This document shows positions 44,299 to 63,407 of a stretch of DNA of 64,000 nucleotides, one piece after another. Source of the DNA: Pseudomonadota bacterium (GTDB lineage: Bacteria; Pseudomonadota; Gammaproteobacteria; Acidiferrobacterales; UBA6901); the NCBI GenBank assembly GCA_021790335.1, contig JAJYEE010000003.1, positions 124,001 to 188,000 on the forward strand, in the 5' to 3' direction. Both the position numbers and the translations under genes were made by a program. Positions within the stretch are counted from its first letter, which is position 1. Each line of letters opens with the position of its first letter. The notes beneath the pieces were generated by a model. It searched no databases and was not told where the DNA came from. It was given only the letters and a program-made list of their open reading frames with translations.

Positions 44299-44375
44299 GG
44301 CTATGTAGCTCAGCTGGTTAGAGCGCGGCACTCATAATGCTGAGGTCGGTGGTTCGAGCCCACCCATAGCCACCA
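44299..44375 (+). tRNA. tRNA-Met, elongator type (anticodon CAT); island attachment site
   Basis: 77 bases with encoded CCA. Acceptor GGCTATG/CATAGCC, anticodon loop ctCATaa, T loop TTCGAGC. The layout equals E. coli elongator tRNA-Met rather than initiator (which has a C1-A72 mismatch) or tRNA-Ile2. An integrase gene begins 131 bases downstream, so its 3' end is the likely attachment core, left intact by the insertion. Confidence 0.96.
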
Positions 44376-44506
44376 TAAAATCAATTACTTAGCTTATCAG
44401 CGACGGGGCCATCACACCGTTTGCTGTAACGGCGCTGTAAATTTCCCCAAAATCCAATTAAAATAGCTCCATCGTCGAGAAACAATGGGGAGGGATTCCT
44501 AAATTT

Positions 44507-45502
44507 ATGGCGTCGTTCATCGCACGAAAAGGACCCGGTGGCCACCGGGTCTGGCAAACCCATATCCGCCGTCGCGGATATCCAGCGCAGGTCCGCACGT
44601 TCGACACGAAAGCCGAGGCGCAGGCCTGGGCAGCCATAGTGGAATCTGAGATCGCCCGTGGTGTCTTTGTCTCGCGCGCCGAGGCTGAGGGGACAACTCT
44701 TACCGAGGCGCTAGATCGTTACGAGCGGGAAGTCACGCCCCACAAAAAGAGTGCATACGACGAACGCTACAAGCTGAAAGCGTGGAGGACCAGCAATCTT
44801 TCGCGGCGCTCACTGGCCAGCATTCAGGGAAAGGATTTGGCGGCTTGGCGCGATGCGGAGATTCGCCGGGGATCTTCTGCTTCGACCGTGCGCCGCAAGC
44901 TCGCGCTGTTTTCCCATCTGTTCGAGATCGCGAGGAAGGAATGGGGAATGGAATCGATCGTCAACCCAGTCGACAATATACGGTTGCCACCACCGGGTCA
45001 GCCTCGTACCCGCCGGCTCGTGGACGACGAAGAAGCCCGGCTCCTGGCCACTGCGAAGACCTACGGTGGCGAAATCGGCCCGATCATCACGTGGGCGATC
45101 GAAACCGCGATGCGCCGCAGCGAAATTTCGGCGATGCAATGGGAAAACTTGGACCGGAAAGCCCACGTGCTACTGCTCCCCGAGACCAAGAACGGCACAC
45201 CCCGGCGAGTGCCGCTCTCAAGCCGGGCACTGGCGGCCTTGGACAGGCTGCCCCGTCGCATCGATGGAAAAGTGTGGGATATGAAACCGGATTCGATCAG
45301 CCAGGCGTTCGAGCGGGTCTGCTTGTCCGCCGGTATCGAAGGGCTGACCTTCCATGATCTGCGTCACGAGGCGACCAGTCGACTCTTTGAGAAGGGACTG
45401 AACCCCATGGAGGTTGCGGCCATCACCGGGCACAAAACATTGCAGATTCTGAAGCGATACACGCACCTGCGGGCGGAAGATCTGGTGGGAAGGCTAGGGT
45501 AG
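44507..45502 (+). CDS. int: Tyrosine integrase of the island
   Basis: 331 residues with a ggggaggg ribosome site. Phage-type tyrosine recombinase: N-terminal SAM-like core-binding region (about 60-150), then catalytic Arg in TAMRRSEISAMQW, HDLRHEATSRLF (HxxR), TGHKTLQILKRYTHL with the nucleophilic Tyr. The N-terminal segment resembles arm-binding domains of integrases such as those of tRNA-targeting islands. Reads away from tRNA-Met, the usual direction. Confidence 0.95.
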   Translation: MASFIARKGPGGHRVWQTHIRRRGYPAQVRTFDTKAEAQAWAAIVESEIARGVFVSRAEAEGTTLTEALDRYEREVTPHKKSAYDERYKLKAWRTSNLSRRSLASIQGKDLAAWRDAEIRRGSSASTVRRKLALFSHLFEIARKEWGMESIVNPVDNIRLPPPGQPRTRRLVDDEEARLLATAKTYGGEIGPIITWAIETAMRRSEISAMQWENLDRKAHVLLLPETKNGTPRRVPLSSRALAALDRLPRRIDGKVWDMKPDSISQAFERVCLSAGIEGLTFHDLRHEATSRLFEKGLNPMEVAAITGHKTLQILKRYTHLRAEDLVGRLG

Positions 45503-45551
45503 GCGCTCGTCTCTTTATTGCACCACAGGCCTGACCCAATCCCTCACGACC

Positions 45552-47174
45552 TCATCCGCGCTGAACCAGATCAACAACCGCGCTCGACACGACCGCCGGC
45601 GGGGCCGCAGGCGGTGGTGCGGACGCCCCGGTTGCGGATGCAGCCACAAACGGCCGGCAAACCTCCGCCCGCGCGGGCAGGATCGGGATCTCGACCCGCG
45701 CAATCGGAAAATCTCCCGCGAGCTTGAGAAATCCCCGCCGATCACGCAGCCCCGCGATCTCCGACGGCAGCACCACCCGTTCGATGCTGATCTGCTCGCT
45801 TTCACCGGAATGCGACCCGCCGGCGCTAGATCCCTCGCTTTGCACCCGGCGCGACAGCTGCTGATCGCCAAGCAGACGGCTGCCCCAGTCCGCGGTCTCG
45901 GGATCAGCGGCGCGCAGGATCAACTGGGAAGAGAAGCAGCTCAACAGCGTCTGCGCACCCTGCAGGCCGTAAGCTCCGCGCAACTGCGCGACCGTCTGCA
46001 GACCGGCACACGCACACAGCCCGAATTTCCGCCCCTGGGTGAGTGCCTCCGACAGCGCCTGGACGCGCCCGAGTGCTGCCAGCTCGTCCAACAGCAGCCA
46101 CAACCGCCGGTTGCGATCCGGCGGCAGCACCAGCACCGCACTCACCAGTTCTCCGATCCACGCCGCAATAAGTGGGCGCAGCGCCGTCGCGAGATCCGCC
46201 CGCACCGGAATCCAGAGCCATCCGCTTCCCCCCTCGACCCAGCGGCGCAGGCTCCAGGCATCCGCCCCCGCACCAGGCGGCAGAAACCGATAGGGCGCGA
46301 GATACGCACCGATGATCGCGCGCACCGAGCCCAACATCTTTGCCGCGCCCGAATCGAACAAGGTCTGCGCCGGCAGACCCCTGACCAGTACTTCGAGGTC
46401 CTCGGAGTTCGCGACGGTGAGCCCCTGCACCAGATCGGCATTCGGGCGCTCCATCAGCCGTTGCAGCACCGCGCTGGTCAACCCCTGGGCGTAGCACTGC
46501 CACTGCTGGGCATCCGGGCCCTCGGTATCGGGGAGCAGGCTCTTCGCGAGGCGCTCCGCCTCCGCCGCCCCCCGCAGCTCGGCAAGCGGTGACCAGGCGA
46601 CACTGCGCGCATCGAGCGGATTCAGCAGGGTGTCACCGCACCGCCAGTACCGCATCATCAGTTCCCCGCCCGGGTCGACCACGACCGCCCGCTCCCCCGC
46701 CCGGTCGCGGATCGCATCAACCAGGGCCTGCAGCGCGAGCGATTTGCCGGTACCGGTGGAACCGGTGAGCAACACATGCTGGGGTTCGATGTCGCGCGGA
46801 ATCGAGACCTCGCCAATGGGGATGGCGCCGTGCTCCCGGCGCGCGGGCCGACCCAGGCGCGCCCCGCGCTGGACGATGTCACGGCATCGCCGCTGGAGCG
46901 CATGCGTGACCACCGCGATGACCACCGCCGCGACCGCCGGCACGAGGTAAACCACCGGCGGCAGGACCCGGGCCAGCTGCACCAGAAACCAAAACACGCT
47001 TTCGCGCGCATGTGGCACCCAAAGCTGCGCGCGCAGCCACCGGCCCGCTGCCCGTGCCCCGTCCGCAAAGCCCGTCGGGTACAGGCAGGCATCGCCGGCG
47101 TAGCCCAAGAGGGTCAGCACCCACCACCCAGTGAGCGTTCCTCGGAACCGTTGGCCTCGCGCTGCCTTCGTCAT
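45552..47174 (-). CDS. Conjugative coupling protein (VirD4/TraD/TrwB family ATPase)
   Basis: 540 residues. Two hydrophobic segments near the N-terminus (about 17-30 and 60-90), then a P-loop ATPase: Walker A GSTGTGKS at 138-145 and Walker B LWLLLDELAALGRV near residue 350. It would connect the relaxase-DNA complex to a secretion channel, pumping DNA. The Pro/Ala-rich C-terminus could be the docking tail. It is downstream of the relaxase on the minus strand (93-base gap). Absence of T4SS genes suggests it borrows another element's channel. Confidence 0.92.
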   Translation of the reverse strand: MTKAARGQRFRGTLTGWWVLTLLGYAGDACLYPTGFADGARAAGRWLRAQLWVPHARESVFWFLVQLARVLPPVVYLVPAVAAVVIAVVTHALQRRCRDIVQRGARLGRPARREHGAIPIGEVSIPRDIEPQHVLLTGSTGTGKSLALQALVDAIRDRAGERAVVVDPGGELMMRYWRCGDTLLNPLDARSVAWSPLAELRGAAEAERLAKSLLPDTEGPDAQQWQCYAQGLTSAVLQRLMERPNADLVQGLTVANSEDLEVLVRGLPAQTLFDSGAAKMLGSVRAIIGAYLAPYRFLPPGAGADAWSLRRWVEGGSGWLWIPVRADLATALRPLIAAWIGELVSAVLVLPPDRNRRLWLLLDELAALGRVQALSEALTQGRKFGLCACAGLQTVAQLRGAYGLQGAQTLLSCFSSQLILRAADPETADWGSRLLGDQQLSRRVQSEGSSAGGSHSGESEQISIERVVLPSEIAGLRDRRGFLKLAGDFPIARVEIPILPARAEVCRPFVAASATGASAPPPAAPPAVVSSAVVDLVQRG

Positions 47175-47267
47175 GATCCCATCTCCTGATCGGAATCGGG
47201 TTCCGGATCGGGGAGGCCGGCGGGTTGCCGGCCTCTCTACATAGGTACGTGGCGGAAATGCCGGTGC

Positions 47268-50108
47268 TCAGCGATCGAGTTCGACCGCGTGCCTCCACGC
47301 CGCCGGGGTCGGCGCAGCCCGCTCCACCGGATGCCCGGCCTCCCGGGCTTGTGCCAGGTCGCCCGCGCGGCCGAGTTCGCGGCTGGCCGCCGCGCGCAGG
47401 GACTGGAGCCGAGACAGATCCGGGATCGACGTCTCGCAGGCCGCGGCGAGGGCGTGCTGCTTTTCTGCCCACGTTTCCCAGGACTTTTGCAGACGCTGCG
47501 GGTTGTCGGTCAGGATCTGCAGGGATTTCCGCTCACGGCTGCACGCAACGTAGGCCGTTTCGGCCGTCGCCACACGGGAAGCCTCGCCGGCGACGATCAC
47601 GTGATCCACCGTCGCGCCCTGGGCGGCATGCACCGTCCGGCACCAGCCGTAATCGATGCTGTGGTTTCTGCTGGGATCGAGTTTGACTTCCCGGCCATCA
47701 TCGAGCCGGGCCGTGACCTGGGGGCCGCCGTCCTGGTCACGCTCGATGCGCTCGATCGTGGCAGGCTGGCCGTTCACGATCTTGTTATCGCCTCGACCCT
47801 GGTTCTCCGTGAAGAGGATCTGGTCGCCGGCGGAGAGGACCATGTCGCGGGATGCATAGACACCAGCGGCTTGCTTGCGGGCCGGGTCCCAGACTTTCTC
47901 CGTGCCGTCCGAGGCGCGCAGCACGACCTGGTTGCCATCGATCCGGTCCACCCGGTAGTCGGTGGTGTGGCGCTTGCGGCCCTTGCCCGCTTCGAGCCGG
48001 ACCACCATGCCCGCGCGGTAAGATTCAACCTGGGTCGCCTTCTCCCGGGTGAGCCCTGCTTTGTCGAGCGCCTGGATCTGAACCTCCGTGCGCGACACCA
48101 CTCCCCGTTCCCGCAGCCCTTCCCGGATCTGCTCATTGACCTGCTGCCGGACCGCATGGGTCCCGGACAGCACCAGCGTCTGGACGCGTTCCTCGGCAGA
48201 CAGGGAGAGATAGGCCTCGGCGGTCGCCCGGGCAATGCCCGCACGCCGCTCCTGGACGGTAGGTTTCGCCGGGTCCTGAGCCTCGATCTGGGCGGATACC
48301 GTGTAGTCCATCGCCTTGCGCGTCGCGGAAGAAGCATCGCCGCGGGCGAAAGCCTGTGCGATGGCGCGCAGATCCGGGTCCACTTGTCGCTTAATCTCAT
48401 CGATCGTGGCGTGCGCCATGGCGCCGGTTTCGATCAGTTGTGCAAACGGCTGGCCAGCCTCGACCGCCGTAAGCTGGCGCGGGTCGCCGACCAGGACGAG
48501 GCGTCCGCCTTCGGCCTCCACCTTCCGCATGAGGGCATCCATGTCGCGGGCCGACACCATGCCGGCCTCGTCCAGGATGACGACACGCTGCGGGTTGTAG
48601 TCGTGCTCGCGTGAGAGGAAGGATGCGGTCGTGCGGTTGACTTCGGCCCCGGCGCTTTCAAGTTCGTTGCGCGCCTTAGCCGAGGGCGCAATGCCGATCA
48701 CTTCAAACCCCTGGTCGCGGGCGGCTTCGACGAAGCCCCTCATACTGGTCGTCTTGCCCGAGCCCGCCGCGCCGACGATGCCGGTGTAGCGGTCCGCGCT
48801 CGTGAGTCCGAGCAGCAATGCCTCACGCTGGCCGTCGGAGTATTTGAAGCCCTGGGCTACTTCACGCTGCTCTACATATAAGGTGGCGCCCTCCGGTTCC
48901 ATGAGCGGGGCGGATTTCCCCCGGCCCGCCCGCGCGCGGGCCAGGATCGCCTGCTCGCGGTGGAGCGCATCGCGGGTCGTGAACTTGCCGTCGCCCGCAT
49001 CGAGCAGTCCGCCGGACTCCACCTCGATCGCGCGGTCCACCCCGGCGAGGGTCGTGTCGCCCATGCCGGCCTTGAGCGCTTCGAGGCGCAGGGCATCGCG
49101 GCGGAACACGGTCTCGCGTTCAGAGAGGTGGCGGGTTCCGGACTTGACGGCCTCATGGGACAGGTCGGAAGGGGCTGTCGCGCGACCTTCCGCCGGGCGG
49201 TCGAGGGCCACGCCGGCCTCACGGGCTTCCTGCCGCCAGACCCACGCTTGATCGCATTTATCGTCCTGCGTCTTGTCCTCGCGGGTCGCGAGATTGGCCA
49301 GGACCCGGTCCGTCGCATCCGACGTTTCACGGGTGAGTCCACGTTCAGCCAGGGCTTCATCGATCTGCGCGGTACGCCCGGAGAACCGGGCGATCTGCTC
49401 GTCGGTGATGTGCTCAAGCTCGAAGCCGTCTTCAGTCCGGCGGATGTCGTACCCCGCCTTCTGGAGTTCCAGCGCCAGTTCGTTCTTGTAATGCGCGTCG
49501 GCGAGGTGCATCAGGACACTGTGCTCCCCGAACTGCAGGTCCATGGTCGCCCAGGTGCCGTCGGCGCGCCGGGTGGCGTTCGCGACGATGCAATGGGTAT
49601 GCAGTTGGGGATCGACGTGGCCGTTGACCGGGCGCGAGTCCTCGTGCCGGTAGGTCGCCGTGACCAGGGAGCCGGTGTTCTCGTGTTCAGCGCCGCCCTT
49701 GCCCCGGCGCGCGGTCAGGACCTCGCGTTCCACCAGGTCGAGCGCTTTGCGCACGGCTAGGTCATGGGCGGTGAGGATCCGTTCATCGCCACCGGCGAGG
49801 GCCTGCAGTGAAACGGACTTCGGGGCGGAGATCGTGAGATCGACGCCCAGGCGCCGGTCATGCTCGCGGTTCCCGCGGGTGGTCAGGTCGGTGCCATCGG
49901 GGAGTTGGCCTTCCAAGACACGCACCAGGTCGTCCCGGTTCACGGGGCCTTCCAGACCCAGGGCTTCCGCCCCGGCGCCGTGCCAGGCTGAAGGCGCGCC
50001 GCCAGAGTAGTAGCCCACACCGTTAGCCCGGCTGCGATGCTCGCAGTAGTTCGCAACGCCGGCAGCGCCGCCGGCGTGGCCAGATTTCAGGTTCTTGATA
50101 CTCAGCAT
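47268..50108 (-). CDS. MobF-family relaxase with C-terminal helicase (TrwC/TraI type)
   Basis: 946 residues, with an aggaaggagat ribosome site. The N-terminal HUH relaxase has tyrosine candidates at 21, 33 and 34 and the metal-binding cluster GHVDPQLHTHCIVAN (histidines near 164, 170 and 172). A RecD-like SF1 helicase follows with Walker A GAAGSGKTTS, VILDEAGMVSARD, and the late motif VHAAQGATVDHVIV. It should nick one strand at oriT and unwind it for transfer. Two separate catalytic modules and length typical of MobF. Confidence 0.94.
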   Translation of the reverse strand: MLSIKNLKSGHAGGAAGVANYCEHRSRANGVGYYSGGAPSAWHGAGAEALGLEGPVNRDDLVRVLEGQLPDGTDLTTRGNREHDRRLGVDLTISAPKSVSLQALAGGDERILTAHDLAVRKALDLVEREVLTARRGKGGAEHENTGSLVTATYRHEDSRPVNGHVDPQLHTHCIVANATRRADGTWATMDLQFGEHSVLMHLADAHYKNELALELQKAGYDIRRTEDGFELEHITDEQIARFSGRTAQIDEALAERGLTRETSDATDRVLANLATREDKTQDDKCDQAWVWRQEAREAGVALDRPAEGRATAPSDLSHEAVKSGTRHLSERETVFRRDALRLEALKAGMGDTTLAGVDRAIEVESGGLLDAGDGKFTTRDALHREQAILARARAGRGKSAPLMEPEGATLYVEQREVAQGFKYSDGQREALLLGLTSADRYTGIVGAAGSGKTTSMRGFVEAARDQGFEVIGIAPSAKARNELESAGAEVNRTTASFLSREHDYNPQRVVILDEAGMVSARDMDALMRKVEAEGGRLVLVGDPRQLTAVEAGQPFAQLIETGAMAHATIDEIKRQVDPDLRAIAQAFARGDASSATRKAMDYTVSAQIEAQDPAKPTVQERRAGIARATAEAYLSLSAEERVQTLVLSGTHAVRQQVNEQIREGLRERGVVSRTEVQIQALDKAGLTREKATQVESYRAGMVVRLEAGKGRKRHTTDYRVDRIDGNQVVLRASDGTEKVWDPARKQAAGVYASRDMVLSAGDQILFTENQGRGDNKIVNGQPATIERIERDQDGGPQVTARLDDGREVKLDPSRNHSIDYGWCRTVHAAQGATVDHVIVAGEASRVATAETAYVACSRERKSLQILTDNPQRLQKSWETWAEKQHALAAACETSIPDLSRLQSLRAAASRELGRAGDLAQAREAGHPVERAAPTPAAWRHAVELDR

Positions 50109-50178
50109 GGAGATCTCCTTCCTCGCCCGCGGAATGCGGACTTCTACCCATGCCGCGGCGCGGAAATTCCAGGAAGGA

Positions 50179-50211
50179 GAAAAAATGAGGCCCGCCGGGG
50201 TGGCGGGCCTC
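50179..50211 (-). terminator. Intrinsic terminator between the 36-residue ORF and relaxase
   Basis: A 9-bp stem aggcccgcc/ggcgggcct (50188-50210) with a 5-base loop; on the minus strand it is followed by a CA and six T (50180-50185). It separates the radC/peptide unit from the relaxase, which therefore needs its own promoter in 50109-50179. Confidence 0.8.
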
Positions 50212-50233
50212 TGTGGTGTGGACGCCGCCGCGA

Positions 50234-50344
50234 CTAGTACAGTCCGACCAGATGGTGGACCTCACAGATCGAGAATCCGGCGGCGACTACACACAGCAAC
50301 ACAAACACGACAACTACTCTGATGATCAACGGCTTCGTGGTCAT
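50234..50344 (-). CDS. 36-residue hydrophobic peptide, single membrane segment
   Basis: Short reading frame with an AGGAGG ribosome site 4 bases before the ATG at 50344. The sequence is two lysines/arginine, a hydrophobic helix (about residues 6-24, mostly V, L, I, F) and a short polar tail with two His, ending in Tyr. It lies between radC and a strong terminator and is likely the last gene of the radC transcript. No family recognised; size and form fit small membrane regulators or type I toxin-like peptides, which is inference. Confidence 0.6.
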   Translation of the reverse strand: MTTKPLIIRVVVVFVLLCVVAAGFSICEVHHLVGLY

Positions 50345-50368
50345 GGGACCTCCTGTTGTCGAGAGGGA

Positions 50369-50854
50369 CTACAACAGCCCCCGCTCTGAAAAACTGATCA
50401 CGCCTTCGCGTCCGACCACGAGGTGATCGAGCACCCGGATGTCCACCAGCGACAGCGCCTCCCTGAGCCGTTGCGTCAGGACTTCGTCTGCCGTGCTCGG
50501 TTCCGGATTTCCGCTGGGGTGGTTGTGGACCATGATGATCGCGGCGCAGTTAAGGGCGAGACTGCGCTTCACGACTTCGCGGGGATAAACCGCCGTGCCG
50601 TTCAGCGTGCCCCGGAACAGTTCCTCGAACGCCAGCACCCGATGCCGCTGATCCAGAAACAGCGCCCCGAAAATCTCGTGTTCCCGACCTGCCAGCCGGG
50701 CCCGCAGGAAGTCGCGGGCCAAGGCGGGATCGGTGAGGGGTTGACCGATCACGCGCTGACCCAGGATGTCACTTGCCGAACTGAGCACTTCGGGTTCCTG
50801 TGCCCGGCGGTATCGCCGGCTGCCGGGTTCGCGGACGTAGAGAATCGATGCCAT
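50369..50854 (-). CDS. RadC/JAB-domain protein of mobile elements
   Basis: 161 residues from the ATG at 50854. The JAMM metalloprotease-like motif is complete: [19 protein letters not shown] (HxH, S and D). RadC-like proteins are common accessory genes of conjugative and integrative elements, with proposed roles in transfer or anti-restriction; the name does not imply DNA repair. No N-terminal helix-hairpin-helix is present. It is divergent from the DUF2892 gene. Confidence 0.9.
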
Positions 50855-51249
50855 GCTGGGTTCCTCCGTTTCGGCGGCCCTCGCCGCCTTCAAGGAATCG
50901 GCGCGCGGGCGGGCAGGACGCATGACAGCCGGGGCTTGGCTGGCGGGTGGCTTGCGAAGCGATGTGGCGTGCGGGAGCGGCGGCGGGGGTTACGGCTATG
51001 GAGGAAGCGGGGCAGCCGTTGCTCGATTTCGTGTCCCGGGCGGGCGCAGCATGACGCGGCAACGGCAGGAGCCGGAAAAGGGACCGTGCTCGGTGCGACG
51101 GTTCGATGGGCGCGTCGGGAGGGGTTATCTCCCGCCTCGCACTGCGCCCCCGGATTCCTTTTTTTTAACGCACCGCGAATCCAAACCACCCCCGCACGCC
51201 TCTTTAGCCGTGAAGGTGCCCCTCCAGGCACCGAAGTGAGGAGCGGAAG
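50855..51249. other. 395-base divergent spacer in the island
   Basis: No supported gene. It should hold promoters for radC (minus) and for the DUF2892-sigma unit (plus); I see no strong consensus. A T-run at 51162-51169 without a stem is present. This and 50109-50179 are the places where an oriT could lie. Confidence 0.45.
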
Positions 51250-52557: not shown

Positions 52558-54132
52558 ATGGCACGCGGCAAGGGGAAAGCCCAGAAGAATAGTAATAGTA
52601 ATGGCGCCACCGTGGGCTTCGAAGCCAAGCTCTGGGCTGCCGCCGATGCCCTGCGCAACAACATGGACGCGGCCGAGTACAAGCACGTCGTCCTGGGGCT
52701 CATCTTCCTCAAATACATCTCGGATGCCTTCGAGGTGAAGCACGCCGAACTCAAAGCCGACAAGAAGTCCGGCGCCGACCCCGAAGACCCCGATGAGTAC
52801 CGCGCTGCCAGCATCTTCTGGGTGCCGAAAGAGGCTCGCTGGCAGCACCTCAAGGCGAGCGCCCCGCAGCCCACCATTGGCACACTCGTGGACGACGCCA
52901 TGACCGCCATCGAGCGGGACAACCCCTCGCTTAAAGGGGTATTGCCGAAGGACTTCGGACGCCCCGGTCTCGACAAGCAGCGCCTCGGGCAGATCATTAA
53001 TCTCGTGAGCGATATCGCGCTCGGCAGTGCCGCCGACCGTGCCAGGGACACCTTGGGCCGCGTCTATGAGTACTTCCTCGCGCGCTTCGCGAGTGCCGAG
53101 GGCAAAAGCGGCGGTCAGTTCTACACCCCCTCCCGCGTGGTGCGGGTACTGGTCGAGATGCTCGCCCCCTTTAAGGGCCGGGTCTACGACCCCTGCTGCG
53201 GCTCGGGCGGGATGTTCGTGCAAAGCGAGCAGTTCATCGAGGCCCATGCCGGAAGGATCGGCGATATCTCCATCTACGGCCAGGAGTCGAACTACACTAC
53301 CTGGCGGCTCGCCAAGATGAACCTTGCGATCCGCGGGATCGATGCCCAGATCGCCCACGGGGACACCTTCCATAACGACCAGCACCCGGATCTCAAGGCC
53401 GACTACGTGCTGGCCAATCCCCCCTTCAACGACAGCGACTGGCGCGGGGAGCTCCTGAAGGACGACCAGCGCTGGGTCTACGGCGTACCCCCCGCGGGGA
53501 ATGCCAACTACGCCTGGGTGCAGCATTTCCTCTACCACTTAGCCCCCACCGGGCTTGCCGGGTTTGTGCTCGCCAACGGCTCCATGTCCTCCAACCAGTC
53601 GGGCGAAGGGGAGATCCGCAAGAACATCATCGAAGCGGACCTGGTCGACTGCATGGTGGCCCTGCCCGGCCAGCTCTTCTATTCCACCCAGATTCCGGTG
53701 TGCCTGTGGTTCCTGGCCAGAGCCAAGAAGAACGGCCGGTTCCGCGACCGGCGCGGCGAGACGCTGTTCATCGACGCCCGCAAACTCGGCACGATGGTGG
53801 ACCGTGTCCACCGCGAACTCACCGACGAGGACCTCCAGAAGATTGCCGGCACCTACCATGCGTGGCGGGGGGATAAGGAGGCAGGCCAGTACGAAGATGT
53901 ACCGGGATTCTGCAAGGCCGCCAAGCTCGACGAGATCCGCAAGCACGGCCATGTGCTTACGCCCGGACGCTATGTCGGCGCGGAGGCCGCCGAAGACGAC
54001 GGCGAGCCGTTCGAGGACAAGATGAAGCGGCTGACCGCGACGCTGCGGGAGCAGCAGAAAGAAGCCGCGAAGCTGGATGCTGCCATCGCTGCAAATCTGC
54101 GCGACCTCGGGGTTTGGAAAGACGCCGGATGA
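52558..54132 (+). CDS. hsdM: Type I restriction-modification DNA methyltransferase subunit
   Basis: 524 residues with a ggggggagg ribosome site. HsdM_N helical domain first ([22 protein letters not shown]), then the N6-adenine methyltransferase: motif [11 protein letters not shown] at about 211-218 and the catalytic NPPF (residues 287-290). With HsdS it methylates the recognition site. It is first in the chain of overlapping genes and overlaps the next by ATGA. Residues 459-517 form a tail duplicated at 55,919. Confidence 0.96.
53932..54108 (+). repeat. HsdM-tail repeat, copy 1 (inside hsdM)
   Basis: Codons 459-517 of hsdM. By hand alignment the encoded 59 residues match copy 2 (55,919-56,095) at 48 positions, while many third bases differ, so the copies are diverged alleles rather than a recent exact duplication. 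Confidence 0.85.
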
Positions 54133-55826
54133 CGCCCGAAGAACTTCAACGCCTCATCGCCAGCGGCGAAACCCTGGCTGTCGAATTCAAGGGCGAGGAG
54201 CGAACATCGCTCAACGACCGCGAATTGGTCGAGAGTGTGGTTTGTCTTGCCAATTGCACTGGCACCGGACCTGCGTTGCTGCTGATCGGTGTCGAAGACG
54301 ACGGCTGTGTCACCGGTGCCCGTCCGCGTCATGGCACGAGTACCGATATTCACAAACTGGCCGCGCTGATCGCTGCCCGTACCCGCCCGGCACTTGCCGT
54401 GCGGATCAAGGAGCTTCTGCTCGACGGCAAGCCAGTACTCATTATCGAAGTCCCGATCCAACGCCAGCCGGTCTCAACGAGCGACGGTGTTTACTTGCAT
54501 CGTGTCCTGGGCGGGGATGCGCGTCCGGCGTGCGTGCCGATGGATGTGTATGCAATGCAGTCCCTGCAATCCGATCGTGGACTGCTCGACCCTTCCGCGC
54601 AACTTGTAGCTGCCGCGCGCTGGGAGGATCTGGACCCACTTGAGTTCGAGCGCTTCCGGCGCAGCGTGCGCGAGCGGCGTGGCCGCAGTGATGAATCTCT
54701 CCTAGATCTTTCCGATCTCGATTTGGCCAAAGCCATCGGGGTTGTCGAGGCCAATGGAACGGTTCGTGGCGTGCGGCTTGCCGCCCTGCTGTTGTTTGGT
54801 AAGGAGGACGCGTTGCATCGTTTCCTGCCTGGCCACGAAGTCGCCTTTCAGGTGTTGCGCGGGCTCGATGTGGAGGTCAATGATTTCTTTCGTTGGCCCC
54901 TGCTGCGGGTGATGGAAGAGGTCGTGGCGCGCATCCGCGCCCGAAACCGCGAACAGGAATTGATGGTGGGTCTGTTGCGCGTCGGCGTGCCGGACTATCC
55001 TGAACGCGCGCTGCGTGAAGCTGTGGCCAACGCCCTTATCCACCGTGACTACCAACGCCTCGGCGCGGTGCATTTTCAATGGCATCCCGACCGCATCGAA
55101 ATCAGCAGCCCGGGTGGTTTCCCCGAAGGGGTGCGGCTGGATAATCTCCTGGTCACTGCCCCGCGCCCGCGCAATCCGCTGTTGGCTGATGCGTTCAAGC
55201 GTGCCGGCATCGTCGAGCGCACCGCGCGCGGCATCGACACCATCTTCTATGAGCAACTGCGTAACGGTCGTCCTGCGCCTTCCTATGAGCGCAGCGACAA
55301 CACGGGCGTGGTCGTTGTGATCCCCGGTGGCGAAGCCAATCTCGATTTTGTGCGCTTGTTGGTCAGCGAGGCGCAAGGCGGGCTCGTGCTGGGTCTGGAC
55401 GAACTTCTCATCCTCAACGCCCTCTGGCAGGAACGAAGCTTTATCACCGAAGACGCTGCGCGCCTTATCCAGAAGCCCGAACCCGAGACTCGCGCCACCC
55501 TGCACCGCCTGGTGGAGGCAGGGCTCATCGAAGAGCGCGGCCAGAAAAAAGGCCGTACTTGGCATCTGTCGGCCGCTGCTTACCGCGCACTTGGCGACAA
55601 GGCCGCCTACGTCCGCCAGCGCGGTTTTGAACCGCTGCAACAGGAACAAATGGTGTTGCAATACGTGGAAAAGCACGGGCGGATCACCCGCAAAGAGGCG
55701 GCGGAATTATGCCGGATCAGTGGTCCCCAGGCTTACCGACTGCTTGACCGCCTTGCGGAACAAGGGCTTCTGGCCCGTAAGGGCGATCGGGGGCGCGGGG
55801 TCGGGTATACGCGAGGGGGGAAATGA
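54129..55826 (+). CDS. AlbA_2/HATPase/winged-helix protein (putative DNA-binding regulator)
   Basis: 565 residues from the ATG that overlaps the hsdM stop. N-terminal AlbA_2 (Schlafen-like) domain: [20 protein letters not shown] and [15 protein letters not shown] (about residues 1-140). A GHKL-type ATPase_4 domain follows ([43 protein letters not shown], about 290-400). Two winged-helix units end the protein (near 425-475 and 505-555). Such proteins are thought to be ATP-dependent regulators, and they recur in type I RM loci. Exact role unproven. Confidence 0.88.
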
Positions 55827-56099
55827 ACGCCGGAAATGCACGGATAGGGACAGAAAATGCACGCGTGCATTTATATACGGTGTGTGCGTATTTCAGGACC
55901 ATGTTTGCCCATAGCGATGACATCCGCAAGCACAGCTACATCCTCACGCCCGACCGCTACATTGGCACCGAAGCCGCCGAAGACGACGGTGAACCATTCG
56001 AGAACAAGATGAAGCGCCTCACCGCAACGCTGCGCGAACAACAGAAGGAAGCCGCGAAGCTCGACGCTGTCATTGCCGCTAACCTCAAGGAGCTTGAGT

Positions 56100-56110
<11 letters not shown>
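55823..56110 (+). CDS. 95-residue orphan HsdM C-terminal tail, coupled at both ends
   Basis: The ATG overlaps the preceding stop (ATGA) and the stop overlaps the hsdS start by 11 bases, so the frame could be translated in the chain. Residues 33-91 equal the C-terminal tail of HsdM (48 of 59 identical); the first 32 are unrelated and overlap a palindromic operator. It is best explained as the 3' remnant of the original hsdM left after a replacement of the upstream part; if made, it could compete with HsdM for HsdS. Confidence 0.7.
55834..55872. promoter_or_regulatory. Palindromic operator-like site with a half-site two turns away
   Basis: The perfect 18-bp palindrome AAATGCACG-CGTGCATTT (55855-55872) and an upstream half-site AAATGCACG (55834-55842) are 21 bases apart, start to start, i.e. 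two helical turns. A TATATA -10-like element follows at 55873-55879. It lies directly after the gene of a winged-helix protein, suggesting autoregulation or a promoter for hsdS-sir2-herA-hsdR. Confidence 0.65.
55919..56095 (+). repeat. HsdM-tail repeat, copy 2 (before hsdS)
   Basis: Second copy of the HsdM tail, in the frame at 55,823. Its end overlaps hsdS as a genuine hsdM normally does, so this is probably the original partner of the present hsdS. Together with copy 1 it brackets the AlbA_2 gene as a direct repeat. Confidence 0.85.
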
Positions 56111-57346
<1,236 letters not shown>

Positions 57347-57350
<4 letters not shown>

Positions 57351-58495
57351 CGGCATTCGATGATCTATCTGCGCTTCGCGCCAAGCCGTTTTCAGACGCG
57401 GTAACAAAATTCGAAGATCTCCTTGTGCAGGAAGGGCGTGCATTTCTGATCGGGGCTGGTTGCAGCAAGTGTGCTGGTCTACCGCTAACTGCCGAACTTA
57501 CTGCGCAAGTTCTTGGGAGCGAAACCCTCGATGCCAAGGGCAAGGAAATCCTGACAGCTGTTAAGACGGTGTTTACCGGTGCCGCGGCCGCGAATATTGA
57601 AGACTACCTGAGCGAACTGATCGACTCGCTCGCAATTGCCGACCGCAGAGCTGACCGCGGCGCCACGCAGGGGACCATTGCCCTTGATGGAAAGAAATAT
57701 ACGGCGGCGGATCTGCGAAGCGCAGCCGACCAAATCAAGTTAGCTATTAGAGGGGTCATTGAGAAGAAGCTCACTATAGATACTCATCGCGATTTTGTCG
57801 CCGCATTGCATCGACCCGTGCGAGTTGGAAAATCGATACCGGGTCAGATCATCGATTACCTCGTGCTCAACTACGACACCGCGATTGAGGACGCCTTGGC
57901 GCTGGAACGCGTCTCCTACGCGGATGGAATAGACGGCGGGGTTACTGGCTGGTGGAACCCTGCTACTTTTGATCGTGATGGCTTGGTGGCACGTGTTCTA
58001 AAACTCCACGGTTCAATTGACTGGTGTGAATTTCCGAATGATCCATTGCCGAGAAGGGTTAGTTCGAGCCTTGACGTGCAAAGTGCGACTGACCGTCGAA
58101 TTCTGATTTGGCCGGCGACTACAAAGTACCGTGAAACACAGTTAGACCCTTACGCCCAACTTGCCGACCGTGCGCGGCGAGTCATGAGACCAAGCCGAGG
58201 TTCCCAGCGTGTTCTTGTTATATGTGGCTACTCCTTTGGTGACGCACACATAAACATTGAGATCGACCGTGCACTCCGGGAATCAGAAGGTGACTTAACC
58301 GTTGTTGCGTTTACGCATATGGATATTCCTGACGGAATACTTATGAGATGGAACGACGACAGCGCGGTTCGAGGGCAAGTCTTGATCTTTGCTAACCGAG
58401 GTTTTTTCCACGGTGATGTCGCTGAGAAATCCACCAGAGATCTCCTGTGGTGGAAATTCGAAAATGTAACGCGACTCCTACGGGGTGAGCGATGA
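57347..58495 (+). CDS. SIR2-family NADase-like defence protein
   Basis: 382 residues. SIR2 Rossmann core with GAGCSKCAGLP (residues 36-46), LNYDT (174-178), the catalytic-type His in KLHGSIDW (H221) and GYSFGDAHIN (294-302). The set is complete, so NAD binding and hydrolysis are plausible. SIR2 proteins of prokaryotic defence deplete NAD+ on phage attack. Encoded directly before herA, with ATGA overlaps on both sides, it forms the HerA-SIR2 pair. Base composition is clearly lower in G+C than the hsd genes. Confidence 0.9.
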
Positions 58496-60249
58496 GCACG
58501 GAAAAGAGAAATCCTGGCGACCCAATTGGTAACCTCGCGATTGGAACAATTATCGAGGTTGATGGTTCGCGGATAATTGCGGAGCTAGATCCCAGCATTG
58601 CGGAGCTATCTAGGGTGTATGCTGGGGAGACTTATCCAATTGGCCAGTTCGGATCAATCGTCCGTGTTCATTTTGGCCGACGTTTGATCTATGCGCTCGT
58701 TGGGAGGCTTCGAATGAAAGCCGACTACGAGGCAGAACACGGTGTTGTTTCCAGGCCATCCACAGATGAACGGATAGTGGAAGCAGATCTTTTTGGTGAA
58801 GGCGAATGGACTCTGGATAGTGGCGGGAATCCAAAGCTGGAGTTCGAGCGTGGCGTTGCAACCTATCCGTTGCCGCAACAGACAGTCTATCTCACACCGA
58901 AATCAGAGCTTCGTTTCATCTATGGACACAGAAAGGGCGCCGTTATCCAGCTTGGTGAACATGTCGGATCGGGCGGGGCACCGTGCTATGCCGATCTAAA
59001 TGAATTGCTTGGCAAACACACGGCTGTCTTGGGTTCAACTGGTTCCGGCAAATCGGGCGCAGTTTCCGCCATTATTCATAGCCTTCTTGAGAGAGGAAGC
59101 GTTGCCGAATATCCAGAGTGGAAGCCACAAATTATTATCCTCGATCCGCATAATGAGTACGGCAAGGCATTCAAGGAACATAAGAGGCTCTCGACCGATG
59201 AGGGGAGCCTATCACTACCTTATTGGCTCTTAAATCTCGACGAAACAATTGGCCTCCTGATTGGTAAGACGGAGTACGCTGCAACGTCGCAGTCAAATAT
59301 TGTAAAAAATGCACTTCTGTCTGCTCGCACGAAGGCGGCAACCGATGTTCTCGAACTAGACCCGACGAAGCTAACCGTTGATGCGCCCATTCCATATGTT
59401 CTCGGAGATCCGACCGGTTTAGACGAATTTGGCGAAATTAGCGGCACCAGATACGAAAATGGCCTCGTAGGTGCGATCAACGCACAAAGGCCCACCAATA
59501 AGAACAAGAAGGACCACGAGGATTACAACAAGGTTTTGAGAAAGCTGGATTCACTCATAAAGGATCAGCGACTGTCGTTCATGATGAAACCGTGGGATGG
59601 CACGGTCGATCCGATGCCAAATTTGTTGGCCCAACTACTGGGGGGCGACAGGACCGTAAGAGTGGTCGATCTCTCAGGCGTGCCCGATGAGGTGGCGGGT
59701 ACTGCGAGTGCGGTAATTGCTAGAACCTTGTTTTCTCTGAAAGTTTGGCAGACACCTGCCGAGCGCGAGCTGAGCCCTGTGCTGTTAGTTTGCGAGGAAG
59801 CTCATCGGTATGTTCCGAACAGCGGTGAGGCCCAGTATGAAGCAGCCCAAAGCGCCATACGTCGAATCGCCAAAGAAGGGCGCAAGTACGGCATCGGGTT
59901 GCTGCTTGTTTCTCAGCGGCCCAGCGAAGTCGAGTCAACAGTCTTGTCGCAATGCAATTCATGGATCGTGCTCCGCGTATCTAACGAGTCTGATAGGGAG
60001 CACGTGCGCGGCGTACTTCCGGATTCTATGTCCGGTTTGACTAAGATGTTATCGGGCTTGCGTCGACGTGAAGCCATATTTGTCGGGCAGGCTGCGATGC
60101 TTCCCTCACGGATAATGATTCGGGATCTACAAAATGAGCAGTTGCCAAAATCGAATGACATTGATTTCGATAGGGGATGGCAGAATCCAGGTATTTCCGA
60201 AGAGCAATTGAAGATTCTATCCACTCGATGGCGCTACCAGCAAAGATGA
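58492..60249 (+). CDS. HerA-type hexameric ATPase/DNA translocase
   Basis: 585 residues. N-terminal HAS-barrel (about 1-110), Walker A GSTGSGKS (about 181-188), Walker [14 protein letters not shown] (about 429-441), a QRPSE sensor motif and a C-terminal lid. In HerA-SIR2 systems the ATPase forms a hexamer to which SIR2 attaches, activating it. It ends in an ATGA overlap with hsdR. Codon use and base composition follow the SIR2 gene, showing they arrived together. Confidence 0.93.
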
Positions 60250-63200
60250 GTAGTGCGTTCACTGAATCCGTCGTTGAAGACGCCACCCTCGCCTGGCTGG
60301 AGTCCCTCGGCTACGAGGTTCTGCATGGCTCAGATATTGCTGCTGGGGAACCCGCCGCCGAGCGCACCGACCCGAACTACCGGGACGTCATCCTGGAAGG
60401 CCGCTTGCGCCAGGCGCTAACGCACCTCAATCCCGGCCTGCCCGCCGAAGCTCTGGAAGACGCCTACCGCAAGCTCACGCGCACCGATGCGCCGTCGCTT
60501 TTGGAGCGCAACCGCGCCGTACACCAGATGCTCGTAGTTGGGGTCACGGTCGAATACCGCCGTGCGGACGGCTCCCTCGCCGGCGCCCAGGCCAGGGCGA
60601 TCGACTTCGACCGGCCCGATCACAACGACTGGCTCGCCGTGAACCAATTCACTGTGGCCGAAGGCCAGCACACCCGCCGCCCGGATGTCGTGGTGTTCCT
60701 GAACGGTCTGCCCCTGGCGGTGATCGAACTCAAGAATCCGGCCGATGAAAATGCCACCATCTGGACCGCCTGGCAGCAGTTGCAGACCTATCAGGCCCAG
60801 ATTCCGGCCCTCTTCGCCACCAACGCCGTACTCATCGTTTCCGACGGCACCCAGGCCCGCATCGGCGCCCTTGGAGCTGGCAAGGAATGGTTCAAGCCCT
60901 GGCGCACCATCACCGGGGAAAAGGACGCGTCGGCGTCGTTATCCGAACTTCAGGTGGTGCTGGAAGGCGTCCTGGAACCGCGCCGTTTCCTGGATCTCGT
61001 GCGCTTTTTTCTGGTCTTCGAAGAATCAGGCGGAGGGTCTTCCGGCCCCGGCCATCTCGTCAAGAAGCTCGCCGGCTACCATCAGTTCCACGCGGTGCGG
61101 GTTGCCATCGAGGAGACCCTGCGGGCCACCCAAGTCCACGCCGCCCACGTCGCCGAGACCCCCGGCCACTATGGGCCGGGTTCCCAGGCGGGCGGCGACC
61201 CCGGGGACCGGCGGGTCGGGGTGGTGTGGCACACGCAAGGCTCTGGCAAGAGCCTCACCATGGCCTTCTATGCCGGGCGCGTGATCCTGCACCCGGCGAT
61301 GGAAAACCCCACTCTCGTCGTGCTCACCGACCGCAACGATCTCGATGACCAGCTCTTCGGCACCTTCGCCCGCTGCCGGGAACTCTTGCGCCAGGCGCCG
61401 AAGCAGGCCGCCGACCGGGCGGATCTACGCGAGAAACTGAAGGTTGCCTCCGGCGGGGTCATCTTCACGACCCTCCAGAAGTTCTTCCCGGAAAAGCAGG
61501 GCGACCGGCATCCGGTCTTGTCGGAACGGCGCAATATCGTGGTCATCGCCGACGAAGCCCACCGTTCCCAGTACGACTTCATCGACGGCTACGCCCGCCA
61601 CCTGCGCGATGCCCTCCCGCACGCTTCTTTCATCGGCTTTACCGGCACGCCGATCGAGAAGGCGGATGCCAACACGCGTGCGGTGTTCGGGGACTACATC
61701 AGCATCTACGACATCCAGCGCGCCGTGACCGACGGGGCGACGGTGCCGATCTACTATGAAAGCCGGCTCGCGCAGATCGCCCTGAAGGCCTCCGAGCGCC
61801 CGAAGATCGATTCTAGGTTCGAGGAAGTCACCGAAGGCGAGGAGATCGAGCGCAAGGAGCAGCTCAAGACCCAATGGGCACGCCTTGAAGCGGTGGTGGG
61901 CGCGAAGGCCCGCATCACCCTCATCGCCCGGGATCTGGTGGAACACTTCGAGAACCGCCTGAGCGCCCTCGACGGCAAAGCCCTGGTGGTGTGCATGAGC
62001 CGGCGGATCTGTCTCGAACTCTATCATGAGATCGCGAAAATCCGCCCCGCCTGGGTCGGGGAGTCCGACGATCAAGGCGCCATGAAGGTCGTCATGACGG
62101 GCTCGGCCAGCGATCCGCTCGACTGGCAGCCCCATATCCGCAACAAACCCCGCCGGGAAGCGCTCGCCCAGCGCTTTCGCGACCCGGAGGATCCCTTTCA
62201 GATCGCGCTTGTCCGCGACATGTGGCTCACCGGCTTCGATGCCCCGAGCCTGCATACCCTCTATATGGATAAACCCATGCGTGGCCACGGCCTCATGCAG
62301 GCCATCGCCCGCGTCAACCGGGTCTTCAAGGACAAGCCCGGCGGGCTTGTCGTGGATTACCTCGGGCTCGCCGAGGAACTCAAACAGGCCCTGGCCACCT
62401 ACACCGAAAGCGGGGGCCAGGGCAAAACCGCCCTCGACCAGGACGAGGCAGTGGCCGTCCTCGTCAAGCACTACGAGATCTGCCGCAGCCTTTTCCACCA
62501 CTTCGACTGGTCAAGATGGACGAGCGGCACCCCCCAGGAGCGGCTCTCGCTCCTGCCGGCCGCCCAGGAGCATATCCTCTCCCACAAGGACGGCAAGGCA
62601 CGCCTCCTGCGTGCAGTCACCGATTTATCGAAGGCCTTTGCGCTCGCAGTCCCGGCCACCGCCGCCTTGGCCATCCGCGATGACGTCGGCTTCTTCCAGG
62701 CGGTGCGCGCGGTGCTTGCCAAGAACACCCCCGGGGAGTGCAAAACGGACGAGGAACTCGATCACGCCATCCGCCAGATCATCTCGAAGGCCGTCGCCTC
62801 CGAAGGGGTGGTCGATATCTTCGCCGCGGCGGGCTTAAAGAAACCGGATCTCTCCATTCTGTCCGATGAATTCCTTGCCGAAGTCCGTACCATGCCGCAG
62901 CGCCATCTGGCCGTGGAACTCCTGCAGAAGCTCCTCAAAGGCGAGATCAAGACACGCGCCCGCCGCAATGCCGTGCAGGGCCGCTCCTTTGCCGAGCTCC
63001 TCGACCAGGCGATCCGCAAGTACCAGAACCGCGCGATCGAAACCGCCCAGGTGATCGAGGAACTGATCGCGCTTGCCAAGGCGATGCGTGCCGCCCATGC
63101 CCGGGGCGAGCAACTCCACCTCACCGAGGACGAACTCGCTTTCTACGATGCGCTCGAAGTCAATGACAGCGCCGTCAAGGTCCTGGGTGAACCCACCTTG

Positions 63201-63407
63201 GTCAAGATCGCCCGCGAACTCGTCGCCACCGTCCGGAAGAACGTCACCATCGACTGGACCGTGCGCGAGAACATCCGCGCTCAGCTACGCGTCATCGTCA
63301 AACGGATCCTGCGCAAATACGGCTATCCGCCGGACAAACAGGAGAGGGCGACCCAGACCGTGCTGGAGCAGGCGGAGCTGCTTTCTGCGGAATGGGCGAT
63401 CACATGA
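60246..63407 (+). CDS. hsdR: Type I restriction-modification endonuclease/translocase subunit
   Basis: 1053 residues from the ATG overlapping herA. The PD-(D/E)xK nuclease is near the N-terminus (D146 in RRPDVVVF, then VIELKNP with E161 and K163). The SF2 translocase follows: Walker [29 protein letters not shown] and [13 protein letters not shown]. The C-terminal helical domain docks onto HsdM. HsdR cuts unmethylated DNA after translocation. It is strongly GC-rich, like hsdM. Confidence 0.96.

What the first reader, a model, noticed from the sequence alone, without database searches (positions are those of the whole stretch)
52558..63407. Composite defence operon: type I RM with a HerA-SIR2 module and a regulator spliced in, all coupled
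Seven frames in one direction, each overlapping the next by 4-11 bases, put hsdM, AlbA_2/HATPase regulator, HsdM-tail ORF, hsdS, SIR2, HerA and hsdR in a single translational chain. HerA-SIR2 and type I RM are each established defence systems, but here HerA-SIR2 sits between hsdS and hsdR with no gap. This suggests conditional coupling: RM as first line and NAD depletion as the back-up when restriction fails. That linkage is inference.
Basis: partly seen in the sequence, partly recalled or inferred. Interest (0 to 1): 0.88.

Follow-up and report, generated by a model that had tools for sequence, protein, structure and literature searches.

The report
Anti-virus cassette inside a restriction operon
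A two-gene bacterial anti-virus module that probably kills or stalls infected cells by destroying NAD has been inserted seamlessly into a restriction-modification operon, at a spot where many other defence genes are also found, so the two defences are probably made together but there is no sign yet that one switches the other on.

Summary
The seven-frame chain is real: hsdM, AlbA_2/HATPase/wHTH, an hsdM-tail ORF, hsdS, SIR2, HerA, hsdR, with overlaps of 4, 4, 11, 4, 4 and 4 nt and the expected motifs. It is not unique. Of 14 distinct close SIR2-HerA loci seen, 6 (window included) are associated with type I RM genes; 8 show none that my queries detect. In 5 of the 6, SIR2 starts at or within 9 nt of the hsdS stop, across three RM gene orders; gap-free hsdS-SIR2-HerA-hsdR recurs once (L019), next to a broken hsdR. 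The place behind hsdS is a general cargo slot: 16 of 17 relatives of this hsdR carry ORFs between hsdS and hsdR (Fic, reverse transcriptase, OLD, Abi_C, another SIR2, AlbA_2 and others), and the last ORF overlaps hsdR in 12 of 18. RM association is scattered over the SIR2 and HerA trees; no residue marks it. Best reading: a mosaic RM operon that captured an autonomous abortive-infection module. Co-expression is likely; PrrC-like conditional coupling is possible but unsupported. The "HsdM-tail ORF" is a recombination scar. Precedents (PrrC, DarTG2, TgvAB; SIR2/HerA between R/M systems) make it a new variant of a known kind.

The parts
52558..54132 (+). hsdM, type I N6-adenine methyltransferase ([12 protein letters not shown] motifs)
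   Evidence: Pfam N6_Mtase 4.4e-111, HsdM_N; motifs; GC3 0.838
54129..55826 (+). AlbA_2 (Schlafen) - HATPase_c_4 - winged-helix protein; regulator or separate defence cargo
   Evidence: Pfam; 4-nt overlap with hsdM; the one other genome of 339 sampled in the class with a relative at 1e-60 (48% identity) has it between hsdS and hsdR of another type I system
55823..56110 (+). hsdM-tail ORF: stub of a second, diverged hsdM allele; recombination scar
   Evidence: 171 nt at 79% identity to the hsdM 3' end; 35 mismatches, 27 of them at codon position 3; 49/60 aa
55855..55872 (.). perfect 18-bp palindrome AAATGCACGCGTGCATTT with a further half-site at 55834-55842; candidate operator
   Evidence: one site in the own genome; expected 0.01 in the window allowing 3 mismatches
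56100..57350 (+). hsdS, specificity subunit, two Methylase_S stretches
   Evidence: Pfam 6.1e-23; GC3 0.571
57347..58495 (+). SIR2-type NADase (GAGCS, N175, H221)
   Evidence: PADLOC SIR2 PDLC04088 7.7e-70; phmmer to SIR2 chain 8w9l 3.8e-10; motifs; GC3 0.514
58492..60249 (+). HerA-type ATPase (Walker A GSTGSGKS, Walker B LLVCEEAH)
   Evidence: PADLOC HerA PDLC04105 2.6e-133; phmmer to 8wiv 1.1e-75; GC3 0.522
60246..63407 (+). hsdR, type I restriction/translocase subunit (PD...ELK, GSGKS, DEAH)
   Evidence: Pfam HSDR_N, SWI2_SNF2, T1RH-like_C; motifs; GC3 0.820

Best explanation
A mosaic type I RM operon next to the genes of an integrated mobile element. An autonomous two-gene abortive-infection module (SIR2 NADase + HerA ATPase, the SIR2-HerA/Nezha type) has been captured in the general cargo slot behind hsdS, just before hsdR; an AlbA_2/HATPase/wHTH gene and an hsdM stub mark a second junction between hsdM and hsdS. 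Working model: the genes are transcribed together (inferred from the overlaps), HsdM/S/R modifies the host and cuts unmodified incoming DNA (family knowledge), and SIR2-HerA assembles on its own and hydrolyses NAD+ when its own phage cue appears, also for phages that escape restriction (family knowledge and inference). The two layers complement each other by co-inheritance and co-expression; SIR2-HerA does not need RM failure as its trigger. The translational chain results from seamless gene-to-gene insertion, which also makes hsdR translation follow that of the cargo.
For: Intact chain and motifs. Same clade with and without type I RM: 6 RM-associated, 8 without detectable type I RM, of 14 distinct loci. 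SIR2 at or within 9 nt of the hsdS stop in 5 of 6 across three gene orders: M-S-SIR2-HerA-(..)-R (window, L024; L019 keeps only an M stub), R-S-SIR2-HerA-..-M (L023), R-AAA-M-S-SIR2-HerA (L018). RM partners are more diverged than the module: L089 HsdR 30%, SIR2 59%, HerA 68%; L024 HsdR 49%, SIR2 58%, HerA 67%. General slot: 16 of 17 relatives. Label scattered on both trees. GC3 of hsdM 0.84 and hsdR 0.82 against hsdS 0.57, SIR2 0.51, HerA 0.52, as if hsdS-SIR2-HerA came as one block. Tail ORF is a diverged hsdM allele. [quoted passage not shown] TgvAB, found within and outside type I RM clusters (PMC11411939, abstract and one section).
Against: Co-transcription and autonomy are inferred, not measured. 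'Without RM' means no tblastn hit to the window's and one S. baltica set of type I queries; other families would be missed, L028/L029 end right after SIR2, and L021 has a C5-methylase gene nearby. Recurrence of SIR2 behind hsdS in several RM families could also reflect selection for functional coupling. L019, the only other locus with the gap-free order, has an hsdR that stops after about 55 codons, in a 5.5-kb MAG contig. The trees have weak deep branches and very long outgroup branches, and the residue test has low power.
Confidence: 0.66

Rival explanations
1. RM guardian, PrrC-like: SIR2-HerA is kept silent by the type I complex and fires when a phage anti-restriction protein blocks it.
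For: PrrC is embedded in the EcoprrI operon and is released when the RM enzyme is inhibited (PMC3874165, PMC12707154, passages; that prrC lies between hsdS and hsdR is recalled); repeated placement of SIR2 behind hsdS.
Against: Same clade without detectable type I RM in 8 of 14 loci; partners from very different RM families; no RM-specific residue; overlap with hsdR is general to the slot; two other SIR2/HerA pairs gave resistance when cloned as gene pairs (PMC11514479; whether those host strains had other RM systems I did not establish).
Confidence: 0.13
2. Inducible defence operon: the AlbA_2/HATPase/wHTH protein binds the palindrome behind its own gene (55834-55872) and sets the output of hsdS-SIR2-HerA-hsdR, as RptR does for RM-DarTG2.
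For: 18-bp perfect palindrome plus half-site, one copy in the genome; wHTH; RptR precedent.
Against: No such site before hsdM; the only TAGCTA of the window is at 57741; the promoter scan finds no + strand site at the palindrome, but it finds none before hsdM either, so it says little; of 101 loci held at that time 4 match the palindrome core: three stretches of the window's own contig and one viral contig fetched by the pattern itself.
Confidence: 0.12
3. Passive hitch-hiking or partial decay: the composite is a recombination product whose parts have no joint effect, and some part (HsdM/HsdS pairing, tail ORF) may not work.
For: hsdM stub, composition jumps; scattered label on trees; some relatives are broken (hsdR of L019, HerA of L018).
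Against: All frames and the searched catalytic motifs of the window are intact; the arrangement recurs.
Confidence: 0.07
4. Assembly artefact joining unrelated DNA.
For: Draft genome, 109 contigs; composition jumps.
Against: Junctions are gene-exact; hsdS-SIR2-HerA-hsdR with 4-nt overlaps at both ends recurs in L019, and hsdS-SIR2 in L018, L023 and L024.
Confidence: 0.02

Closest known systems
SIR2-HerA (Nezha, GAO_19) anti-phage system
   Same: Two overlapping genes, SIR2 catalytic N and H, HerA Walker motifs, sequence similarity to the chains of solved complexes
   Different: Sits inside a type I RM operon without a spacer of its own; in the 9 distant plasmid records inspected no type I RM gene is annotated within the 7-8 kb flanks shown (annotation incomplete)
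EcoprrI-PrrC
   Same: Suicide effector embedded in a type I RM operon
   Different: Other effector (anticodon nuclease); sequestration by RM is known there and not shown here; here close copies occur without detectable type I RM
RptR-RM-DarTG2-M48 island of EPEC (PMC12255303)
   Same: Toxic module between hsdS and hsdR, operon on mobile DNA
   Different: SIR2-HerA in place of DarTG2; no TAGCTA before hsdM; the candidate palindrome lies after the AlbA_2 gene
TgvAB in the VPI-2 type I RM cluster (PMC11411939)
   Same: Two-gene defence module inside a type I RM operon, also found outside such clusters
   Different: Type IV restriction, not NAD depletion
SIR2/HerA near R/M systems in the S. thermophilus CR3 island (PMC11514479)
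   Same: SIR2/HerA next to R/M genes
   Different: The text says 'inserted between' (three strains) or 'downstream of' (two strains) R/M systems and does not state placement within one hsd operon

Membership tests
SIR2-HerA (Nezha) | adjacent SIR2 and HerA genes of the defence families | tested here: met
   PADLOC SIR2 7.7e-70, HerA 2.6e-133; 4-nt overlap
SIR2-HerA (Nezha) | SIR2 active-site Asn and His; HerA Walker A and B | tested here: met
   N175, H221, [16 protein letters not shown]; N175 and H221 invariant in 10 SIR2 rows; G186, K187, S188, E435 and E436 invariant in 9 HerA rows
SIR2-HerA (Nezha) | homology to the solved SIR2-HerA complex | tested here: met
   phmmer 3.8e-10 and 1.1e-75 to chains that share entries 8wld, 8woc, 8wod, 8wof
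SIR2-HerA (Nezha) | NAD+ depletion on phage infection | not testable with these tools
   needs an experiment
Type I RM | HsdM, HsdS and HsdR with catalytic motifs in one operon | tested here: met
Type I RM | methylation at a bipartite motif and restriction activity | not testable with these tools
   needs methylome and restriction assay
PrrC-type RM guardian | effector embedded in the type I RM operon | tested here: met
PrrC-type RM guardian | lasting, specific pairing of effector with RM | tested here: not met
   8 of 14 loci without detectable type I RM; scattered on trees; no discriminating residue
PrrC-type RM guardian | silencing by the RM complex, release by an anti-restriction protein | not testable with these tools
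   needs an experiment
RptR-regulated RM island | TAGCTA repeats before hsdM | tested here: not met
   one TAGCTA in the window, at 57741 inside SIR2; the variant sites named in the paper were not searched

The most novel reading that the evidence does not exclude
The position behind hsdS is a guardian slot: type I operons keep swapping suicide modules there, and because translation of hsdR follows that of the cargo, and cargo products may dock on the HsdMS core, each occupant, SIR2-HerA here, answers to attack on the RM enzyme. SIR2-HerA would then be an NAD-depleting counterpart of PrrC.
Probability: 0.12. Interest if true: 0.8.

Novelty: new variant of a known kind. Interest (0 to 1): 0.5.

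Why it matters
It adds an NADase module to the toxic or suicide modules reported inside type I RM operons, shows its capture behind hsdS in several RM families, and gives a sampled count of how commonly the hsdS-hsdR interval holds cargo. That makes a clear test possible: does a module behave differently inside an RM operon than outside, and does the slot itself (order, coupling to hsdR) matter?

Tried and rejected
Rejected: (1) order unique to this genome: L019, L018, L023, L024 and L089 show otherwise. (2) An RM-specific SIR2-HerA lineage: 6 changes on each tree, no discriminating column. (3) Tail ORF as a functional subunit: it is a diverged hsdM stub; L019 also carries an hsdM stub just before hsdS, behind another gene's end. 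(4) tRNA-derived att repeat: no 14-mer of either tRNA region recurs in the 69.2 kb examined. (5) Palindrome as a widespread operator: one viral contig (L101, no tblastn hit to the window's proteins or the S. baltica RM set), about what chance would give by a rough estimate of mine that assumes contigs of some 20 kb. (6) Close AlbA_2 relatives on plasmids: none at 1e-40. (7) RNA families at gathering scores in the window: only two tRNAs. Structure prediction was not run, because sequence similarity to solved complexes settled the SIR2 and HerA families.

Limits: the library holds open-licence PMC papers only. That I found no report of hsdS-SIR2-HerA-hsdR rests on the listings, of which several show only the top of the list (20 of 575, 15 of 125, 15 of 96, 20 of 28).

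Full report
OBSERVATION. The chain exists as described: seven intact ATG-started frames with overlaps of 4, 4, 11, 4, 4 and 4 nt.

ANATOMY. GC3 falls from 0.84 (hsdM) to 0.68 (AlbA_2), 0.67 (tail ORF), 0.57 (hsdS), 0.51 (SIR2) and 0.52 (HerA), then returns to 0.82 (hsdR): hsdS-SIR2-HerA looks like a foreign block (inference). The tail ORF holds 171 nt at 79% identity to the hsdM 3' end; 27 of 35 mismatches are at codon position 3, so it comes from another, once-functional hsdM allele rather than from a fresh duplication. L019 also has an hsdM stub just before hsdS. Between the AlbA_2 stop and the stub lies a perfect 18-bp palindrome with a further half-site, single in the genome: a candidate operator.

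RECURRENCE. A pattern-based scan of genome contigs (one genome for each of 84,980 species) with SIR2, which reaches close relatives only, gave 8 loci; viral contigs gave 10, of which 4 are close; of 266 plasmid records with a SIR2 match one is close, S. baltica pS22302. Genome sets: 16 of 369 in the class at E <= 1e-3, of which only the own genome is close and 15 are weak, 27-37% identity; at E <= 1e-50, 2 of 398 in the phylum, 1 of 60 relatives (the own) and 1 of 78 in the class of G390 (G390 itself); these sets overlap. Distinct close loci: 14 (L028 and L029 have identical SIR2 and are counted once; L104 and L105 are the contigs of L031 and L030). RM-associated: window, L018, L019, L023, L024, L089. 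No type I RM detected with the window's and the S. baltica queries: L020, L021, L022, L025, L026, L028, L030, L031; among the few neighbours scanned are transposases, a TIR_2 protein and, in L021, a C5 methylase. SIR2 starts at or near the hsdS stop in window (-4), L019 (-4), L023 (-4), L024 (-8) and L018 (+9); in L089 two genes and 129 nt intervene. HerA abuts hsdR in window (-4), L019 (-4) and L089 (+2). In L024 other genes, among them a reverse transcriptase and AbiEii, lie before hsdR; in L018 HerA is cut to 81 codons near a Tn3 transposase gene; in L019 hsdR stops after about 55 codons; in L023 hsdS is in two ORFs. Copies without RM have 68-902 nt between SIR2 and the nearest upstream + strand ORF of 90 codons or more; for L028-L031 this is counted from the start of the match, which is not the start codon. 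Nine more distant HerA plasmid hits were inspected: 8 SIR2-HerA pairs and one HerA alone, none with an annotated type I RM gene within the 7-8 kb flanks shown, though PLSDB annotation is incomplete.

THE SLOT. HsdR matches at E <= 1e-200: 47 of 369 genomes, 50 places, the window's own included. I fetched 20 of the 49 others, near the top of the ranking, passing over G208, G070, G092 and G163. Three were set aside: L071 (broken hsdR; only an opposite-strand ORF between hsdS and hsdR, so it would count against), L077 (hsdS not in view, two cargo genes), L079 (truncated). Of the other 17, 16 carry same-strand ORFs of at least 100 aa between hsdS and hsdR, and L072 has none. Twenty-seven proteins of this slot were scanned with Pfam (two of them from L077) and one more, not every ORF; ten also with PADLOC: Fic or RhuM-Fic, M78 peptidase, AbiP2 reverse transcriptase, OLD, Abi_C, a 586-aa SIR2 (PDC-S65), AlbA_2/HATPase, AAA/SMC, DEAD helicase, DUF3800, DUF1828; L078 4931-5869 and L085 11599-12609 had no Pfam hit, and the ORF next to hsdR in L078 is IS200-transposase-like, so not all cargo is defence. 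The ORF before hsdR overlaps it by 1-17 nt in 12 of 18 loci tested (the 17 and L077; L078's is the transposase-like one); window and L089 are extra. So the seamless chain is a property of the slot.

EVOLUTION. On the SIR2 tree (17 rows, 16 different) and the HerA tree (15 rows; L018 with 14% of columns) the RM label needs 6 changes each, at least 3 forced by well-supported branches, with no clustering (500 of 500 shuffles as low). Deep branches are weak and the two outgroup rows very long. L019 groups with the window on SIR2 but not on HerA, a hint of recombination inside the module. No column separates RM-associated from other copies: 0 of 389 for SIR2 (6 against 8), 0 of 595 for HerA (5 against 7, L018 and L028 left out), a low-power test.

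AlbA_2 PROTEIN. At E <= 1e-60, 2 of 339 genomes of the class match, one of them the own. The other, G136, has a 48% relative between hsdS and hsdR of another type I system, in which the matches to hsdM, the AlbA_2 gene and hsdR change frame. L080 (two copies) and L087 carry more distant proteins of this architecture between hsdS and hsdR, L069 one before hsdM (23-28% identity), and L089 has a DUF4062-HATPase-HTH protein between two hsdM genes. DUF4062 was reported as a TIR-like NADase defence domain (PMC13174449, abstract). The window protein may therefore be an effector-sensor cargo rather than a regulator.

FUNCTION. Shown: anatomy, recurrence, slot, scar. Inferred: co-expression; NADase activity; autonomy. 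In V. cholerae the SIR2 active site and HerA are needed for Nezha defence, which depletes NAD+ (PMC11559045, passages). Two S. thermophilus SIR2/HerA pairs from loci between R/M systems were cloned as pairs and gave resistance (PMC11514479, section 19 part 1). PrrC embedded in EcoprrI acts when the RM enzyme is inhibited (passages). [quoted passage not shown]

SETTING. tRNA-Met 44299-44375, a tyrosine integrase 44507-45502, a TrwB/TraD-type coupling protein 45552-47174, a TrwC relaxase 47268-50108 and RadC 50369-50923 lie upstream: an integrated mobilizable or conjugative element is likely; its ends are not mapped, so that the operon lies within it is an inference.

VERDICT. Real and recurrent, but the specific RM-to-NAD coupling is not supported. 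New variant of a known kind.

Noticed in passing
window 44299-50923: tRNA-Met, tyrosine integrase, TrwB/TraD coupling protein, TrwC relaxase and RadC: probably an integrated mobile element that carries the defence operon; no att repeat found within 69 kb.
   Followed up: partly
window 55834-55872: Perfect 18-bp palindrome with an extra half-site, single in the genome, right after the AlbA_2 gene.
   Followed up: partly
L083 4967-6727 (-): A different, 586-aa SIR2 protein (PADLOC PDC-S65) sits with an Abi_C protein in the same hsdS-hsdR slot.
   Followed up: no
L089 1974-3497: DUF4062-HATPase_c_4-HTH protein between two hsdM genes: the HATPase_c_4 scaffold seems to carry exchangeable N-terminal domains (AlbA_2 or DUF4062).
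   Followed up: no
L072 5888-6304, L073 9450-9887, L080 6283-6699: NTase_sub_bind proteins between hsdM and hsdS: a second cargo slot.
   Followed up: partly
L019 1-360: hsdM 3' stub just before hsdS, behind the end of another gene (it looks like an ORF6N-type protein, from recall): same kind of scar as the tail ORF of the window.
   Followed up: partly
L019 1718-4560 against window 57347-60249: SIR2 and HerA trees disagree on L019, which suggests exchange of SIR2 and HerA between modules.
   Followed up: partly
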